A stretch of 64,000 nucleotides of DNA from Nocardioides sp. ChNu-153 (GTDB lineage: Bacteria > Actinomycetota > Actinomycetes > Propionibacteriales > Nocardioidaceae): assembly GCF_030466625.1 (NCBI RefSeq), contig NZ_JADEVT010000009.1, positions 62,001 through 126,000 of the forward strand, given 5' to 3'. The notes under the pieces were generated by a model. That model had not been told where the DNA came from. It ran no database searches and saw nothing but the letters and a program-made list of their open reading frames with translations. This document shows, one piece after another, positions 3,135 to 58,006 of the stretch (position 1 is the first letter of the stretch; every line of letters starts with the position of its first letter). A program made the position numbers and the translations under genes.

Positions 3135-6863
<3,729 letters not shown>

Positions 6864-6864
6864 C

Positions 6865-7545
6865 GTGGCCGACGCGACCCCCGGCAGCGGTACCGGCCTG
6901 CCCGCCGCCGCCCTGTGGGACATGGACGGCACGCTCGTCGACACCGAGCCGTACTGGATCGCCACGGAGTTCGAGCTCGCCGAGCGGTACGGCGGCACGT
7001 GGAGCACCGAGCACGCGCTCAACCTCGTCGGCAACGACCTGCTCGTGTCGGGCCGCTACATCCGCGAGCACATGGGCATCGAGCCGAGCGCCGAGGAGAT
7101 CGTCGAGCTGCTGCTCGACGGCGTGGTGGAGAAGGTGCGCCGCGAGGTGCCCTGGCGCCCCGGCGCCCGGGAGCTGCTCGCCGACCTCGCCGCCGCGGGC
7201 GTGCCCTGCGCGCTCGTCACCATGTCCTACCGCCGGTTCGTCGAGCCGATCCTGGAGGGCCTGCCCGCCGGGACGTTCGCGGCCCTCGTCACCGGGGACG
7301 AGGTCGAGCACGGCAAGCCGCACCCCGCGCCGTACCTCACCGCGGCCGCCGCGCTGGGGGTCGACCCGGGCGACTGCGTCGCGATCGAGGACTCGGCGAC
7401 CGGGGTCGCGTCCGCCGTCGCCGCCGGGTGCCGCGTGCTGGCGGTGCCGCACCACGTGCAGGTGCCGGCCGGGCCGGGGCACACGAGCCACGACACGCTC
7501 GCCGGGCTCGACGCCCGCGGGCTGTGGACGCTCGTCGGCGGCTAG
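6865..7545 (+). CDS. HAD superfamily hydrolase (beta-phosphoglucomutase-like phosphatase)
   Basis: The 226-residue protein has HAD motif I as WDMDGTLVDTEP, motif II around VTMSYRR, the motif III lysine in HGKPHPAPY and motif IV in CVAIEDSATGVASA. The helical cap between motifs I and II is of the C1 type, as in phosphoglycolate phosphatase and beta-phosphoglucomutase relatives. The substrate cannot be told from sequence. It starts with GTG just after the metH stop, so it is probably co-transcribed with metH. Its 3' end overlaps the convergent RecB-family gene by 4 nt. Confidence 0.9.
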   Translation: MADATPGSGTGLPAAALWDMDGTLVDTEPYWIATEFELAERYGGTWSTEHALNLVGNDLLVSGRYIREHMGIEPSAEEIVELLLDGVVEKVRREVPWRPGARELLADLAAAGVPCALVTMSYRRFVEPILEGLPAGTFAALVTGDEVEHGKPHPAPYLTAAAALGVDPGDCVAIEDSATGVASAVAAGCRVLAVPHHVQVPAGPGHTSHDTLAGLDARGLWTLVGG

Positions 7546-53024: not shown

Positions 53025-53681
53025 ATGGCGGGCAGCCCGGACCGGATCTACGCCGACCCATCCACCGAGAGGTTGATGACGGGCGCGACGGTCATCACCT
53101 TCGTGCGCACGGTCGCGACCCTCGTGCTGAGTCTCTGGGGCGCCCACGAGCAGAGCCTCACCCTGCTGGTCGTCGGCCTCGTCGTCTACTGGGTGGGGGA
53201 CTCCCTCGACGGCGAGTGGGCGCGCTGGTTCGACTGCGAGACGCGGATCGGCGCCGTGGTCGACATGCTCTGCGACCGCCTGAGCTGCGCGGCGTTCTAC
53301 CTGGGCCTCGTGTGGCTGCAGCCCGAGATGGCGTTCCCGGTCGCCGTCTACCTCTTCGAGTTCATGGTCATCGACATGTTCCTGTCGATGGCGTTCCTCG
53401 CGTGGCCGCTGCGCAGCCCCAACTACTTCCACGTCGTCGACCGGCGGATCTACCTGTGGAACTGGTCGCGCCTGGGCAAGGCGGCGAACTCGGGGCTGTT
53501 CGCCATCATCCTGCTCGTCACCGGCTGGTGGTGGCTGGGGCTGGTCATCGCCGTCGGCCTGCTGGTGATGAAGTGCGTCTCGCTCAAGTGGGTGCTCGAC
53601 CTGGGCCTGCCGGTCCCCGCCGCGCCCGGCGCCGCGTCCGCCGTACCCAGCGGGGCGCCGACCGGGGGACCGACCGGGTGA
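53025..53681 (+). CDS. CDP-alcohol phosphatidyltransferase family protein
   Basis: The 218-residue membrane enzyme has the complete signature D-x2-D-G-x2-A-R-x8-G-x3-D-x3-D in DSLDGEWARWFDCETRIGAVVDMLCD, which binds the metal and CDP-lipid. The rest is predicted transmembrane helices. Which alcohol it uses (inositol phosphate, glycerol phosphate or other) is not given by the sequence. The C-terminal tail is Pro/Gly/Ala-rich. Its stop overlaps the next gene (GTGA), which is a small membrane protein. Confidence 0.9.
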   Translation: MAGSPDRIYADPSTERLMTGATVITFVRTVATLVLSLWGAHEQSLTLLVVGLVVYWVGDSLDGEWARWFDCETRIGAVVDMLCDRLSCAAFYLGLVWLQPEMAFPVAVYLFEFMVIDMFLSMAFLAWPLRSPNYFHVVDRRIYLWNWSRLGKAANSGLFAIILLVTGWWWLGLVIAVGLLVMKCVSLKWVLDLGLPVPAAPGAASAVPSGAPTGGPTG

Positions 53682-54133
53682 TCCTGCTCCTGACCACCTT
53701 CGGGGTCGGCGTCGCGTCCGCCCTCCTCCCGGTGGTCAACGCGGAGGCCTACCTCGCCGGCGTCGGAGCGCTGGGCACCGGGGGGCTCGTGCTGCTGTCC
53801 GTCGCGGCCGGCGCGGGCCAGACGCTGGGCAAGGTGGTCTGGTACGAGGTCGCGCGCCGCGGCGTGGAGACCGAGTGGGCGCGCAAGAAGCTGTCCGGCC
53901 CGAAGGTGCAGCGCGTCCACCAGCGCTGGAGCGACCGCATGGAGGGCCGGCCCTGGTACGCCGCGGCGATCATGCTCGTCTCCTCGCTCGGCGGGGTCCC
54001 GCCGCTGCTCGTCATGGCCGCGGTGGCCGGTGTCCTGCGGATGCGCCGCGAGGTCTTCGTCGTGTCGGTGCTCGTGGGCCGTTCGCTGCGGTTCTGGCTG
54101 GTGCTGGCCGGGGTGCACCTCCTCTTCCACTGA
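53678..54133 (+). CDS. Small membrane protein (VTT/YqaA-like)
   Basis: A 151-residue protein with three or four hydrophobic stretches: LLTTFGVGVASALLPVVNAEAYLAGV, GGLVLLSVAAGAGQTLGKVVWYEVA, AAAIMLVSSLGGVPPLLVMAAVAGVL, and the end VSVLVGRSLRFWLVLAGVHLLFH. The pattern of an ExxL-type first helix, GQTLGK and an internal GVPP loop resembles small VTT/DedA-like or YqaA-like proteins. No function is proven. GTG 53678 overlaps the phosphatidyltransferase stop, so the two are coupled and may act on the same lipid. Confidence 0.65.
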   Translation: MILLLTTFGVGVASALLPVVNAEAYLAGVGALGTGGLVLLSVAAGAGQTLGKVVWYEVARRGVETEWARKKLSGPKVQRVHQRWSDRMEGRPWYAAAIMLVSSLGGVPPLLVMAAVAGVLRMRREVFVVSVLVGRSLRFWLVLAGVHLLFH

Positions 54134-54159
54134 GCGTCCCGGCCCCCGGTCGGGCAGTC

Positions 54160-54325
54160 CCGGTCTAGTCCTTTCGGACTACTCCACCTGGGCCCTCTGG
54201 CCCGGGACCTGGACCGGTCGGCCATTTCCCGGTCCCAGGACGAGGTTCGTCTCCCGTTGTCCTCCGGACGCCCGTCGAGCGGCCGAGGGGAGGGGGGACC
54301 GCTCAACTCCTGGAAAGGCACCCTC
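54160..54325 (+). promoter_or_regulatory. Structured multi-hairpin leader of the TasA-like gene
   Basis: Four stems occur in series. TAGTCC-TTTC-GGACTA (54166-54181) is perfect. CCTGGGCC with GGCCCGGG (54187-54206) has one G-U pair and a CTCT loop. CCTGGACCGG (from 54208) pairs with CCGGTCCCAGG further on, with one bulge. AGGAC/GTCCT encloses GACGA-GGT-TCGTC. A GGAAAGG ribosome site then leads to ATG 54326. The leader may be a riboswitch-like element or a cis-acting RNA. No known class is recognised, and it should be compared with other surface-protein leaders. Confidence 0.5.
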
Positions 54326-54934
54326 ATGCGCACCCCGTCCCGCAAGTCGACGAAGATCGCCACCGCTGCCGCCACGCCCGTCGCCGTGCTCCTCGCCGGC
54401 GCGCTGGTCTGGCAGTCCTCGCACGCCGCCTTCAGCGGCACCACCCGCAACTCGGGCAACTCGTGGTCCACCGGTGCAGTCAGCCTCACCGACGACGACG
54501 CCGGTAGCGCCCGCTTCCAGGCCGAGAACATGACGCCCGGCGACACCGAGACCAAGTGCATCAAGGTCACGGCGACCACCAACGTCTCCGGTCTCGTGAA
54601 GGGCTACGCCCTCAACGCCGTCACCTCCGCCCAGGGCCTCGAGAACTACATCAAGATCGGCATGACCTCGGGCGACGGCGGCGGCTTCGGCAGCTGCACC
54701 GGCTACGTCCAGAACCAGACCGTCGTGCCGTCCGGCACCAGCCTGGCGGACCTGGCGCAGATCGACGAGTACGCCGAGGGCGTGGGCGGCTGGTCCGTGG
54801 CCGCCGGCACCAGCTCGCGCACCTACGCGATCACCTGGACCTTCGACACCACGGGCCTCAACCAGACCCAGGTCGACCAGCTCCAGGGCGCCAAGACCGG
54901 CATCGACATCCAGTGGGAGCTGCAGACCGACTGA
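54326..54934 (+). CDS. TasA-like/SipW-dependent secreted surface protein
   Basis: A 202-residue secreted protein. The signal helix (residues 12-33) ends SSHAAFSGTTRNSGN. The Ala-Ala-Phe-Ser run at 34-37 and the following small polar residues are the mark of SipW-processed TasA/camelysin-type exports. The mature part is a compact beta-rich domain with an acidic AENMTPGDTETKCIKVT stretch and two cysteines (Cys78-region and Cys131-region by eye), possibly a disulfide. It may be a biofilm or surface fibre subunit. The next gene encodes the SipW-type peptidase, so the two form an export unit. Confidence 0.8.
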   Translation: MRTPSRKSTKIATAAATPVAVLLAGALVWQSSHAAFSGTTRNSGNSWSTGAVSLTDDDAGSARFQAENMTPGDTETKCIKVTATTNVSGLVKGYALNAVTSAQGLENYIKIGMTSGDGGGFGSCTGYVQNQTVVPSGTSLADLAQIDEYAEGVGGWSVAAGTSSRTYAITWTFDTTGLNQTQVDQLQGAKTGIDIQWELQTD

Positions 54935-55031
54935 GCCCCCGCGGGTGCTCGTCGCACCCGCTCGCCGTACCCGGCGTCACCGCCGTGACGCCCGCCCCCG
55001 ACCCGCCGACGCCCCGAGAGGAGTCCCGCAC

Positions 55032-57374
55032 GTGACCGACGTCGTCGCCCCCGTCCCGCCCGGCCAGCCCGGCGCGCCGGACGGGTCGCACGACCCCGTC
55101 GCGGGACCCTCCAGGGGCGACGTCGTCGGGGGCGTCCTCGTGACCGGGCCCGCCGCTCCCGCCGCCGCGCGGGAGTGGGCGGGCCTCGCCGTCGTGGTGG
55201 CGGCCCGGGCCTACCGCGCGGCCCTGCTGACCCTCGTCGCCGTCGCGACGCTGCCCCTGCTGTGGAGCTGGTCGAGCCACGTCGTGCGCACCGGGTCGAT
55301 GGAGCCGACGATCGCCCCCGGCGACGTCGTCGTCGCGCAGCCCTTCGGCGAGGCCGAGGACGTGCCGCTCGGCAAGATCATGATCTTCCGCAACCCCGCG
55401 CTCACCGACCGCGAGCAGCTGCTGGTCCACCGCGTCGTCGACGACCGGGGCGACGGCAGCTGGACCACCCGCGGTGACGCCAACCCCGGCAACGACGCCA
55501 CGCCGGTCACCCGCGACGACCTGCGCAGCCGCGCCGTGCTGCTCGTCCCGTTCGTCGGCAAGCCCTACGTGTGGGCCGCCGGCGGCCAGCCGCTCCAGCT
55601 CCTGCTCCTCGCCGGCTGGCTCGCCCTGACGGTCGCGGCGTTCGTCGTGGCGTCGCGGCGCCCCGACGCCGACGGCGCTGCCGGCGAGGGCGACGGCGAG
55701 GGCGCTGCCGGCGAGGGCGACGGCGAGGGCGACGGCAGGGGTGAGGGCGGTGACAAGGCCGAGCGGGCCGACGCCACCGTCGCCGGCCGGCCCGCCGCCG
55801 GCCCCTCCGCCACCGGCAGCCGCACCGACCCGTCGCACCGCGCCCAGCGGTCGCGACCCGACCTGCGGCGGGTCGCCTCGGCGGTCGTCGCCGTCGTCGC
55901 GCTCGTCGTGGGGGCGGCGGCCTGGGGCACGGCGGGCGCCGCCTTCACGGCCACCACCGTCACCGCCGGGTCGACGTGGACCGTCTCGGCGAGCCTGGCC
56001 ACCAAGGTCACGCTGAACCGCCCCGCCGACGCCGTGCGCGGCACGGTCCCCCTGACGGCGACCCTCCAGGACTCCAGCAAGCTCGTGACCGGGGTGCGCA
56101 TCGACTACGCGCCGGCCGGCACGACCACCTGGCGCACCATCTGCACCGACACGACCTCGCCGTACTCCTGCGACTGGGCGACGGCGTCGCTCACCAACCA
56201 GGACTACGACCTGCGGGCCGTCGCGCTGGCCGGGGCGACCACCCACGTCTCCGAGCTCGTCGAGGACATCTCCGTCGACAACGTGGCGCCGACCGTCGTC
56301 CTGTCCGACCCGGGCACCCCGCTGCGCGGCACCGTCACGCTGAACGCCAGCGCCGGCGACGCCCACTCGGGCGTGGACCGCGTCGTCGTCCAGTACGCCG
56401 CGACCGGCACCACCACCTGGCGGGACGCCTGCAGCACCAGTGAGGAGCCCGCCACCTGCCGCCTCGACACGACCACGATGGCCGACGGCAGCTACTCCTT
56501 CCGGGCCGTCGCCACCGACGCGGCCGGCAACAGCACGACGTCGGCGACCATCGCCAACCGCACCGTCGACAACCGCGTCGCCTCCGTCGCGGTCACCGAC
56601 CCCGGCGCCTTCCTCAGCGGGACGGTGCAGGTGGGCGCGACGGCGTACTCCCCGAACGGCATCGCCTCCGTGCGGATCCAGCGGGCCACGAGCGGCTCGA
56701 CGACCTGGACCGACCTGTGCACCGACACGACCTCGCCGTACTCCTGCACCTGGGACACGACCCTGGTCGCGAACGGCCTGTACGACCTGCGGGCGATCCT
56801 CACCGACACCGCCGGTCGCACGACGACCTCGGCGGTCGTCGCGAGCCGCCGGGTGGACAACAGCCCCGTGCGGGCCGCCGACGTGCAGACCACCCAGGGT
56901 GGTGCCAGCGCCGGGCGTCTCGACCAGGGCGACCGGATCACGTTCACCTACAGCGGCCAGGTCCGGCCGGCCAGCATCAGCTCCGGGTGGACCGGGTCGG
57001 CGCTCGCCGTCAACGTGCGGCTGCGCGACGGCGGACTCATCGGGACCGGCAGCACCGGCGACACGATCGACGTGCTGCGCAGCGGCTCGGCCGTGGCGCT
57101 CGGGTCGGTCAACCTGCGCCAGAGCTACATCCGGTCGCTGCGCACCGCCCAGTTCGGCGCCACGATGACCGCCTCGACGGTCACCGTCGGCGGGGTCAGC
57201 GTCACCCAGGTCGTCCTGGTGCTCGGCGCCCAGACCAGCGGTTCCGGGCTCTCGACGGTCAGCACCGCCTCGGCGATGGTGTGGACGCCGTCGACCACGG
57301 CCACCGACCTCGCCGGCCGAGCCGTCTCGGCGACGCCCGTCACCGAGACCGGGGCGTCCGACCGCGAGTTCTGA
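55032..57374 (+). CDS. SipW-type signal peptidase I fused to a SipW-type export signal and Ig-like repeats
   Basis: A 780-residue three-part fusion. Residues 50-205 form an ER/SipW-type signal peptidase: a transmembrane helix at 63-78, then Ser89 in TGSMEPTIAPGDV, His133 in VHRVV (in place of Lys), RGDANPG and a second helix. A GAAGEGDGE-rich linker follows. At residues 285-305 a new hydrophobic helix ends GTAGAAFTATTVTAG, with Ala-Ala-Phe at 303-305, the same kind of SipW-dependent site as in the gene above. After it come about three Ig-like repeats of some 90 residues with near-identical CTDTTSPYSC blocks, and a C-terminal domain with a DQGDRITFTYSG block. GTG 55032 follows a GAGAGGAG ribosome site. 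The exported part may be cleaved by its own peptidase domain. Confidence 0.88.
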   Translation: MTDVVAPVPPGQPGAPDGSHDPVAGPSRGDVVGGVLVTGPAAPAAAREWAGLAVVVAARAYRAALLTLVAVATLPLLWSWSSHVVRTGSMEPTIAPGDVVVAQPFGEAEDVPLGKIMIFRNPALTDREQLLVHRVVDDRGDGSWTTRGDANPGNDATPVTRDDLRSRAVLLVPFVGKPYVWAAGGQPLQLLLLAGWLALTVAAFVVASRRPDADGAAGEGDGEGAAGEGDGEGDGRGEGGDKAERADATVAGRPAAGPSATGSRTDPSHRAQRSRPDLRRVASAVVAVVALVVGAAAWGTAGAAFTATTVTAGSTWTVSASLATKVTLNRPADAVRGTVPLTATLQDSSKLVTGVRIDYAPAGTTTWRTICTDTTSPYSCDWATASLTNQDYDLRAVALAGATTHVSELVEDISVDNVAPTVVLSDPGTPLRGTVTLNASAGDAHSGVDRVVVQYAATGTTTWRDACSTSEEPATCRLDTTTMADGSYSFRAVATDAAGNSTTSATIANRTVDNRVASVAVTDPGAFLSGTVQVGATAYSPNGIASVRIQRATSGSTTWTDLCTDTTSPYSCTWDTTLVANGLYDLRAILTDTAGRTTTSAVVASRRVDNSPVRAADVQTTQGGASAGRLDQGDRITFTYSGQVRPASISSGWTGSALAVNVRLRDGGLIGTGSTGDTIDVLRSGSAVALGSVNLRQSYIRSLRTAQFGATMTASTVTVGGVSVTQVVLVLGAQTSGSGLSTVSTASAMVWTPSTTATDLAGRAVSATPVTETGASDREF
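55675..55740 (+). repeat. Short tandem repeat encoding the GEGDGE linker
   Basis: A 27-bp unit (GAAGEGDGE at protein level) is present twice with a shorter third copy, in the linker between the peptidase and the export signal. Confidence 0.7.
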
Positions 57375-57484
57375 GTCCGGACAGCCCCCGGTCTGGTGGA
57401 CTGGGTGCCGACGTGGGGGAGCGGGGGCCGAGCCCGCCGGGAGGCTGCGACGGGCGCGACCGGGCCTGGGAGGGAGGGGCGAAG

Positions 57485-58006
57485 ATGATCCTGCCGGAGG
57501 TGCGGGACCCCCGCCTCGTGACCGTCCGCCGTGGCGGCACCCTGACCGACGCCGACCACCGGTCGATCGCCCTGTGAACGGCGACCTGCGCGGAGCACGT
57601 GCTGCCCCTGTTCGAGGCCGTGCGTCCGGACGACCCACGGCCGCGGGACGCCGTCGCGGCCGTACGGGCCTGGACTCGCGGCGAGCTGGCGATGATGCGG
57701 TCGCGGGCCGCCGGCGGCCACGCCATGGGCGCGGCCCGCGACCTCCGGGGCGCGGCCCGGCACGCGGCGTACGCCGCCGGTCAGGCCGGCGCCGTGGCCC
57801 ACGTCGCCGAGCACGACCTGGGCGCCGCCGCCTACGCCATCAAGGCCGTGCGCGCCGCGGCCGAGGCCGCCGGCGACGACGCGCTCGCGGCGGGTCGCCG
57901 CGAGTGCCGGTGGCAGCGCGACCAGCTGCCGGCGGAGATCCGCGACCTCGTGCTCGAGGACCAGCAGCGCCGCAACGCCCTGTGCTGGTCCGTGTTCGAG
58001 GCGTGA
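57485..58006 (+). pseudogene. Imm5-like putative immunity protein with in-frame TGA
   Basis: One frame runs from ATG 57485 (MILPEVRDPRLVTVRRGGTLTDADHRSIAL) through a TGA at 57575-57577 into TATCAEHVLPLFEAVRPDDPRPRDAVAAVRAWTRGEL and on to 58006. The alignable order, a start block, an LW-A-x-C-A-E-x-V-L-P-L-F block and a helical Ala/His-rich end (HAAYAAGQAGAVAHVAEHDLGAAAYAIKAV), is that of Imm5-like immunity proteins. The TGA occurs where a Trp or other residue is expected. Translation could re-initiate at GTG 57599 (135 residues). No toxin gene is next to it. It looks like a recent nonsense mutation or a sequencing error. Confidence 0.65.

What the first reader, a model, noticed from the sequence alone, without database searches (positions are those of the whole stretch)
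54326..57374. Signal peptidase fused to its own predicted substrate
One 780-residue protein joins a SipW-type signal peptidase (Ser89, His133) to a second transmembrane helix that ends in the Ala-Ala-Phe type site (303-305) used by SipW substrates. Ig-like repeats follow. A separate TasA-like substrate with the same site is encoded just upstream. If the peptidase cuts its own downstream site, the Ig part would be released outside while the peptidase stays in the membrane. I know of no described example.
Basis: inference. Interest (0 to 1): 0.65.

Follow-up and report, generated by a model that had tools for sequence, protein, structure and literature searches.

The report
Signal peptidase carrying its own substrate
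One bacterial protein joins a membrane enzyme that trims exported proteins to a second exported protein, with that enzyme's kind of cutting site in between; the layout recurs in many relatives with different exported parts, so the protein probably cuts itself.

Summary
Window 55032-57374 (+) encodes one 780-residue protein: an ER-type (SipW/Sec11-like, Ser89/His133) signal peptidase, a linker, a third (not second) transmembrane helix ending in A-G-A|A-F (301-305), then three Ig-like domains and a C-terminal beta domain. The gene upstream (54326-54934) encodes a secreted protein with a predicted TasA fold and the same kind of site. I read the fusion in 19 of 98 genomes searched in its genus (Nocardioides) and in named Frigoribacterium, Curtobacterium, Microbacterium, Modestobacter, Arthrobacter and other records, behind a TasA-like gene. 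Payloads differ (Ig, LamG, GH26, others) while the site stays: P1 Ala in 35 of 35 aligned fusions, P2' aromatic in 33. A profile of the fused sites picks out the neighbouring substrates' signal peptides. In one congener the three parts are separate genes, the payload starting with a SipW-type signal peptide. The host genome shows no other ER-type peptidase over the model cut-off and no third clear site. Self-processing is the best reading; cleavage is not shown, cis versus trans is open. My searches of an open-access library showed no description. New variant of the SipW/TasA kind.

The parts
54326..54934 (+). Upstream gene: 202-aa secreted protein with predicted TasA fold, predicted substrate
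   Evidence: ORF; AlphaFold2 model, mean pLDDT 75.2; best match TasA 5of2, Z 10.3, rmsd 3.2, 142 aligned, first unrelated row Z 6.6; 36-row alignment A4
54326..54427 (+). Its SipW-type signal peptide, residues 1-34, predicted cut A34|A35-F36
   Evidence: site profile of the fusions hits it with E 1.5e-8 among ORFs of the loci and 4.3e-7 in the whole genome
55032..57374 (+). Fusion gene, 780 aa: ER-type signal peptidase - linker - third helix with site - Ig payload
55188..55244 (+). TM1 (residues 53-71)
   Evidence: hydropathy; helix 44-77
55245..55589 (+). Catalytic domain; Ser89 (55296-55298), His133 (55428-55430), Asp149 and Asp155, all invariant in 35 aligned fusions
   Evidence: a profile of ten fusions matches SEC11C/SEC11A in the PDB, E 1.1e-10 and 3e-9
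55599..55655 (+). TM2 (190-208)
55656..55871 (+). Low-complexity, predicted cytosolic linker (209-280); pLDDT under 50 over 213-277
   Evidence: 29-95 residues in 35 fusions
55872..55928 (+). TM3 (281-299), preceded in the window protein by basic residues; signal-peptide-like
55932..55946 (+). Predicted cleavage site A301-G302-A303|A304-F305
   Evidence: P1 Ala 35/35, P2' aromatic 33/35; lines up with the predicted TasA site (PMC10269814)
55941..55979 (+). First 13 residues after the predicted cut (AFTATTVTAGSTW), similar to those of the TasA-like neighbour (AFSGTTRNSGNSW); possible donor strand
   Evidence: the donor strand of TasA is residues 28-38 (PMC9674648, passages)
56004..56876 (+). 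Three Ig-like domains of the payload (boundaries approximate)
   Evidence: Pfam Big_7, three stretches, and Big_13; beta strands
56877..57371 (+). C-terminal beta-rich part of the payload, no Pfam family reported there
   Evidence: aligned to the C-terminus in the Ig-type relatives

Best explanation
This is a SipW/TasA-type export cassette in which the peptidase and a second secreted substrate have become one protein. The peptidase half (TM1, outer catalytic domain, TM2) matures the TasA-like protein made just upstream. The third helix is the former signal peptide of the second substrate: it sends the payload out and shows an A-x-A|A-F site at the outer membrane face, where the same kind of enzyme acts. 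Sites of this class are cut poorly by ordinary P-type signal peptidase, and this protein is the only clear ER-type peptidase in the genome, so it most likely cuts its own site, in cis or between copies. That frees the Ig part and leaves the peptidase in the membrane. The freed payload starts with a segment like the one with which TasA subunits join, so it may cap, start or decorate a TasA-like fibre, as TapA does. SHOWN by sequence: fusion, catalytic residues, third helix and site, conservation, payload exchange, unfused counterpart; TasA fold next door by predicted model. INFERRED: topology, cleavage by its own kind of enzyme (about 0.7), cis rather than trans (not decided), fibre role (about 0.35).
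For: One intact frame; L057 (Nocardioides alkalitolerans) 76% identical in alignment A3. Ser, His and GDxN...D invariant in 35 fusions; nearest solved relatives SEC11C/A. P1 Ala is the only invariant column outside the peptidase in A1 (22 rows) and A3 (35 rows), which overlap in part; in 18 representatives under 70% identical in the peptidase, P1 is Ala 18/18 and P2' aromatic 18/18. A profile of the fused sites finds 33 of 39 TasA-like ORFs and 0 of 3440 other ORFs at E<=0.01; profiles of TM1 and TM2 find 1 TasA-like ORF each. Whole genome: the site profile hits the fusion (1e-9) and the neighbour (4e-7), next 0.05; one TIGR02228 match over cut-off, the other match being a P-type SPase I by its motifs (motif reading recalled). 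Payload exchange: L038 shares 59% of the peptidase but only a 31-of-92 local match in the payload; Arthrobacter L004 shares 42% of the peptidase but 53% of the payload; tree. Unfused counterpart: G012/L055 has a stand-alone peptidase, a TasA-like gene and, overlapping its stop, a 336-aa protein with an N-terminal G-T-G-A|A-F site, 31% identical over 335 positions to the fused payload of G142. The site lies in a low-confidence, probably flexible stretch just after the helix. TasA has Phe at P2' and is poorly cut by LepB: PMC10269814, abstract and introduction.
Against: No cleavage data. NCBIfam's SipW-cognate signal model TIGR04088 finds nothing in the host genome; neither it nor the TasA model hits the window's upstream protein, and among 36 substrates only 3 and 5 hit, weakly. 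TIGR04088 is also not among the families matched by the 35 fusions at E<=0.001. P2' is Leu in 2 of 35 rows (both Microbacterium) and P1' is Pro in 3 (Curtobacterium, Frigoribacterium); PMC10269814 lists absence of Pro at P1' as favouring export. That paper traces the LepB block mainly to Trp at P2, and the window site has Gly there. The model's domain arrangement is uninformative (pTM 0.33). The hydropathy cut-off misses TM2 and TM3 in L042/L063 and one helix in L074 and L077. I located the sites by eye when cutting rows for A1 and A3, which favours their alignment, and left L088 (Asp at P2', payload lost) and L091 out of A3.
Confidence: 0.7

Rival explanations
1. The site is not cut. TM3 is a permanent anchor that displays the payload on the cell, perhaps holding the first TasA-like subunit by the segment after the helix; the peptidase half only matures the upstream protein.
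For: TM3 is hydrophobic enough to be an anchor; no cleavage data; a fibre system needs a cell anchor, and TapA is thought to anchor TasA to the cell wall (PMC9674648, passages).
Against: An anchor does not need Ala at P1 and an aromatic at P2'; these are kept in 35/35 and 33/35. The region resembles the substrates' signal peptides specifically. The unfused counterpart has it as an N-terminal signal.
Confidence: 0.16
2. The site is cut, but by the genome's ordinary P-type signal peptidase I; the fused peptidase serves the upstream protein only.
For: A P-type enzyme is present; A-x-A is also its consensus (recalled). The P2 Trp that PMC10269814 holds mainly responsible for blocking LepB is absent here: P2 is Gly.
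Against: Aromatics at P2' hinder LepB: none of 143 verified LepB substrates has one (PMC10269814 introduction). Such sites travel with ER-type peptidases in the loci read.
Confidence: 0.09
3. The C-terminal part is a receptor or regulator of the peptidase (for example sensing surface contact or binding substrate), and the site is a vestige.
For: B. subtilis SipW is reported to be bifunctional (said in PMC13082335, passages).
Against: Payloads as different as LamG, Ig and GH26 sit behind the same site; a vestige would decay.
Confidence: 0.05

Closest known systems
Bacillus subtilis tapA-sipW-tasA operon
   Same: ER-type signal peptidase beside a TasA-fold substrate with Phe at P2'; a second substrate of the same peptidase in the operon (PMC9674648 passages; PMC10269814)
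   Different: There the three are separate proteins; here peptidase and second substrate are one chain, and the payload is Ig/LamG/GH26-like (TapA itself was not compared here)
Bacillus cereus sipW-tasA / calY / CapP
   Same: One peptidase said to process several filament proteins (PMC13082335, passages)
   Different: Separate genes; no fused payload mentioned in the passages seen
Eukaryotic Sec11 / archaeal-type (TIGR02228) signal peptidases
   Same: Catalytic domain with aligned Ser, His and Asp
   Different: Sec11 has no export signal and payload behind it (recalled)
Viral polyproteins with built-in protease (recalled)
   Same: Works alike: protease and its products made as one chain and separated by cutting
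   Different: No relation claimed; here the cut would be a signal-peptide cut at the outer membrane face
Self-cleavage of P-type signal peptidases (recalled)
   Same: A signal peptidase cutting its own chain
   Different: Recalled as nicking within the enzyme, not release of a cargo domain

Membership tests
S26B / ER-type signal peptidase (TIGR02228) | Model score over cut-off | tested here: met
   60.4 bits, cut-off 51.85; 35 of 35 fusions match at E<=0.001, cut-off not checked for each
S26B / ER-type signal peptidase (TIGR02228) | Ser-His (not Ser-Lys) active site with downstream Asp | tested here: met
   S89, H133, D149, D155 invariant in 35; aligned with SEC11C/A
SipW proper (NF046067, Bacillus) | Equivalog score over cut-off | tested here: not met
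   43.8 bits, cut-off 190; so SipW-like, not SipW
TasA (upstream protein) | TasA jelly-roll fold | tested here: met
   predicted model, Z 10.3 to 5of2, 10.2 to 5of1, 7.8 to the fibre 8aur; first unrelated row 6.6. Foldseek alone was weak: no match under E 0.001, TasA second at 1.8e-3
TasA (upstream protein) | NCBIfam TasA model NF046066 | tested here: not met
   no match for the window protein; 5 of 36 substrates, best E 8e-5; so TasA-like
SipW-cognate signal peptide (TIGR04088) | Model match | tested here: not met
   0 in the host genome; 3 of 36 substrates, best E 5.9e-4
TasA-type substrate site | Small P3, Ala P1, aromatic P2' after a hydrophobic stretch | tested here: met
   fusion A-G-A|A-F; P1 35/35 and P2' 33/35 among relatives
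TapA (second substrate) | Sequence or fold relation of the payload to TapA | not tested
   TapA not compared; role analogy only
Donor-strand fibre | Polymer formed by N-terminal strand exchange | not testable with these tools
   needs expression and microscopy

The most novel reading that the evidence does not exclude
A self-releasing export module: the peptidase frees its own C-terminal cargo in cis, so enzyme, TasA-like fibre subunit and a swappable adhesin, lectin or enzyme are made together, and the freed cargo's new N-terminus is a donor strand that plugs it onto the TasA-like fibre. It would be a plug-in fibre-decoration system spread across Actinomycetota, with interchangeable cargo behind one conserved cut site.
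Probability: 0.27. Interest if true: 0.8.

Novelty: new variant of a known kind. Interest (0 to 1): 0.63.

Why it matters
Signal peptidases are known as separate enzymes that serve many clients. A recurrent lineage in which the enzyme carries its own client, with the client exchanged but the cut site kept, would give a compact self-processing export unit, a natural test of cis cleavage by membrane proteases, and a handle on TasA-like fibres in Actinomycetota, which the listings of my searches did not show described. Existing records name such proteins by payload alone, as 'Ig-like domain-containing protein' or 'glycosyl hydrolase'.

Tried and rejected
Frame artefact: rejected; single open frame, co-linear relatives.

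Chance resemblance of the site: rejected by conservation and by the profile test with TM1/TM2 controls.

A single odd genome: rejected.

Fold search of the whole fusion listed mostly Ig, FnIII and similar multi-domain proteins among its 50 rows and said nothing on the peptidase. AlphaFold2 gave no domain arrangement (pTM 0.33), so docking of the site in the active centre could not be judged.

A hairpin after the upstream stop (54941-54961, 8-bp arms) folds with z -3.2 in the window, but only 8 of 36 loci, the window included, have z below -1.5: not a conserved attenuator. No sigma-70-like promoter or T-tailed terminator in 54130-57520.

Haloarchaeal plasmid matches (four of the seven records) were not examined.

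Literature: eight searches listed no title or abstract start that describes a signal peptidase fused to a secreted payload. I saw listings, several of them capped (20 of 28, 25 of 73, 15 of 2175 and 12 of 438 papers), and the library holds only open-licence PMC papers. One search was too broad to be useful.
Full report
CHECK. The fusion gene is window 55032-57374 (+), one open frame of 780 codons plus stop. Ser89, His133 and A303-A304-F305 are as stated. The site follows the third hydrophobic helix, not the second; a borderline fourth segment, 714-732, is beta strand in the model. The quoted start, 54326, is that of the separate upstream gene.

THE ENZYME. NCBIfam TIGR02228 matches residues 64-194 over its cut-off; the SipW model of Bacillus (NF046067) matches far under its cut-off. 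A profile of ten fusions finds SEC11C and SEC11A among solved structures, E 1.1e-10 and 3e-9. Ser, His and two Asp are invariant in 35 fusions. The genome (99.96% complete) has one match over the TIGR02228 cut-off, this protein; the weak second match is a 295-aa protein with the Lys-type motif of ordinary signal peptidase I (motif reading recalled).

THE SITE. In 35 aligned fusions (34 named loci plus the window; L088 and L091 left out) P1 is Ala in 35, P2' is Phe 30, Trp 2, Leu 2, Tyr 1, P3 is Ala 26, Ser 5, Leu 2, Thr 1, Val 1. L088, read by eye, has Ala at P1 and Asp at P2'; with it the counts are 36 of 36 and 33 of 36. Except for the window and five Ig-type rows, rows were cut some 25 residues after the site I had located by eye, which helps the alignment. 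P1 Ala is the only invariant column outside the peptidase in A1 (22 rows) and A3 (35 rows), which overlap in part. Less dependent on that: a profile of the fused sites, run on 3516 ORFs of the window and 36 loci, finds 33 of 39 TasA-like ORFs and 0 of 3440 unrelated ORFs at E<=0.01; the best unrelated one, at 0.013, looks like an ordinary signal peptide. Its hits to 34 of 38 peptidase-class ORFs are its own training rows in the main. Control profiles of TM1 and TM2 find one TasA-like ORF each, probably the Actinoplanes ORF that belongs to both classes. Across the host genome the profile hits the fusion (1e-9) and the neighbour (4e-7), then 0.05. The predicted TasA cut has Ala28 at P1' and Phe29 at P2'; Phe at P2' goes with poor cutting by LepB, though that paper traces the block mainly to Trp at P2, which the window site lacks (PMC10269814, abstract and introduction read).

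THE NEIGHBOUR. The 202-aa upstream protein gave a model with mean pLDDT 75.2, low over its first 49 residues. VIA-align puts TasA first: 5of2 Z 10.3 (rmsd 3.2, 142 aligned), 5of1 10.2, fibre 8aur 7.8, first unrelated row 6.6. Foldseek alone was weak: nothing under E 0.001, TasA second at 1.8e-3. Sequence models of TasA and of SipW-cognate signals miss the window protein and hit 5 and 3 of 36 substrates weakly.

DISTRIBUTION. Genus search: 63 of 98 genomes have some match at E<=0.001; I read the fusion in 19, the window's included, and stand-alone or other forms in eleven more; the other 33 were not read. All 18 relatives read have a TasA-like gene upstream. Phylum sample: 56 of 149 genomes match at E<=1e-6; the profile runs through the site in 5, the window's included. 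One more, G157, has a differently built fusion with H-S-Y-A|V-F and sits among stand-alone peptidases in the tree (support 88/58), so it may be an independent event; G227 has a C-terminal extension without such a site. Named loci: 36, from Nocardioides, Frigoribacterium, Curtobacterium, Microbacterium, Modestobacter, Actinoplanes and an Intrasporangiaceae MAG; 35 of 36 matched ORFs run on through a site region with Ala at P1 and have a TasA-like gene upstream, L088 without a payload. The 36th, in Actinoplanes (L091), is stand-alone, but a second ORF there fuses the peptidase directly to a TasA-like domain. Two Arthrobacter plasmids and one Pseudarthrobacter plasmid carry Ig- and GH26-type fusions, annotated only by their payloads.

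MODULES. Payloads are Ig, LamG, GH26, beta domains of about 110 residues and others. Peptidase and payload histories disagree: the window and L038 share 59% of the peptidase, but their payloads give only a 31-of-92 local match; the window and the Arthrobacter L004 share 42% of the peptidase and 53% of the payload. In the tree the Nocardioides Ig-type rows lie within LamG-type rows and the Arthrobacter Ig-type rows apart from them; many inner forks are weak.

UNFUSED COUNTERPART. G012, same genus, has a stand-alone 176-codon peptidase frame, a TasA-like gene on the other strand and, overlapping its stop (ATGA), a 336-aa protein with an N-terminal signal ending G-T-G-A|A-F. That protein is 31% identical over 335 positions, site included, to the fused payload of G142. 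This points to TM3 being a signal peptide taken in when the genes fused.

MECHANISM. One clear ER-type enzyme, two matching sites, and a site that survives exchange of everything behind it: the simplest account is that the enzyme cuts both, its own included. Linkers of 29-95 residues between TM2 and TM3 allow cis cutting but do not prove it. TasA subunits join through residues 28-38, exactly those after the cut, and TapA's similar N-terminus may start the fibre (PMC9674648, passages). The window payload starts AFTATTVTAGSTW, the neighbour AFSGTTRNSGNSW; 11 residues after P2' there is Trp in 36 of 36 substrates and an aromatic in 22 of 35 fusions (17 Trp, 5 Phe). So a freed payload could join the fibre; this is inference.

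NOVELTY. Eight literature searches listed no such fusion (limits under Tried and rejected). The parts are known; their union into a self-processing unit with exchangeable cargo appears undescribed in what I could see.

Noticed in passing
L091 (Actinoplanes sandaracinus) ORF from 1981, + strand: 394-residue frame in which an ER-type peptidase is fused straight to a TasA-like domain, next to a stand-alone peptidase and separate TasA-like ORFs.
   Followed up: partly
L134 (G157) 5378-6799 +: Distant fusion with a Y-A|V-F site and an unrelated payload; the tree places its peptidase among stand-alone ones, so it may be an independent fusion.
   Followed up: partly
L135 (G044) 5577-7136 -: LamG-type fusion whose peptidase lacks the GDxN...D half and TM2; no other frame supplies it, so probably a dead copy that keeps the site.
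   Followed up: partly
L088 (Modestobacter sp. VKM Ac-2986) around 5013-5753 +: Payload lost: the frame ends 21 residues after the site, while the close relative L089 has a whole LamG payload.
   Followed up: partly
L006 5851-7497 + (Pseudarthrobacter plasmid): The annotated start of the 'glycosyl hydrolase' (6037) cuts off the front of the peptidase domain.
   Followed up: no
L004, L005 (Arthrobacter plasmids): The cassette is carried on plasmids, with recombinase or transposase genes within a few kb; in TMP15 an ice-binding protein and a class F sortase lie downstream.
   Followed up: no
window 54941-54992: Two GC-rich hairpins with perfect 8-bp arms just after the upstream stop; not conserved in relatives, might set the ratio of the two products.
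   Followed up: yes
window 57599-58006 +: Protein matching Pfam Imm5_like, a putative immunity protein, just downstream; no toxin partner sought.
   Followed up: no
window 53025-54133 +: CDP-alcohol phosphatidyltransferase gene followed by a VTT-domain protein, just upstream of the cassette.
   Followed up: no
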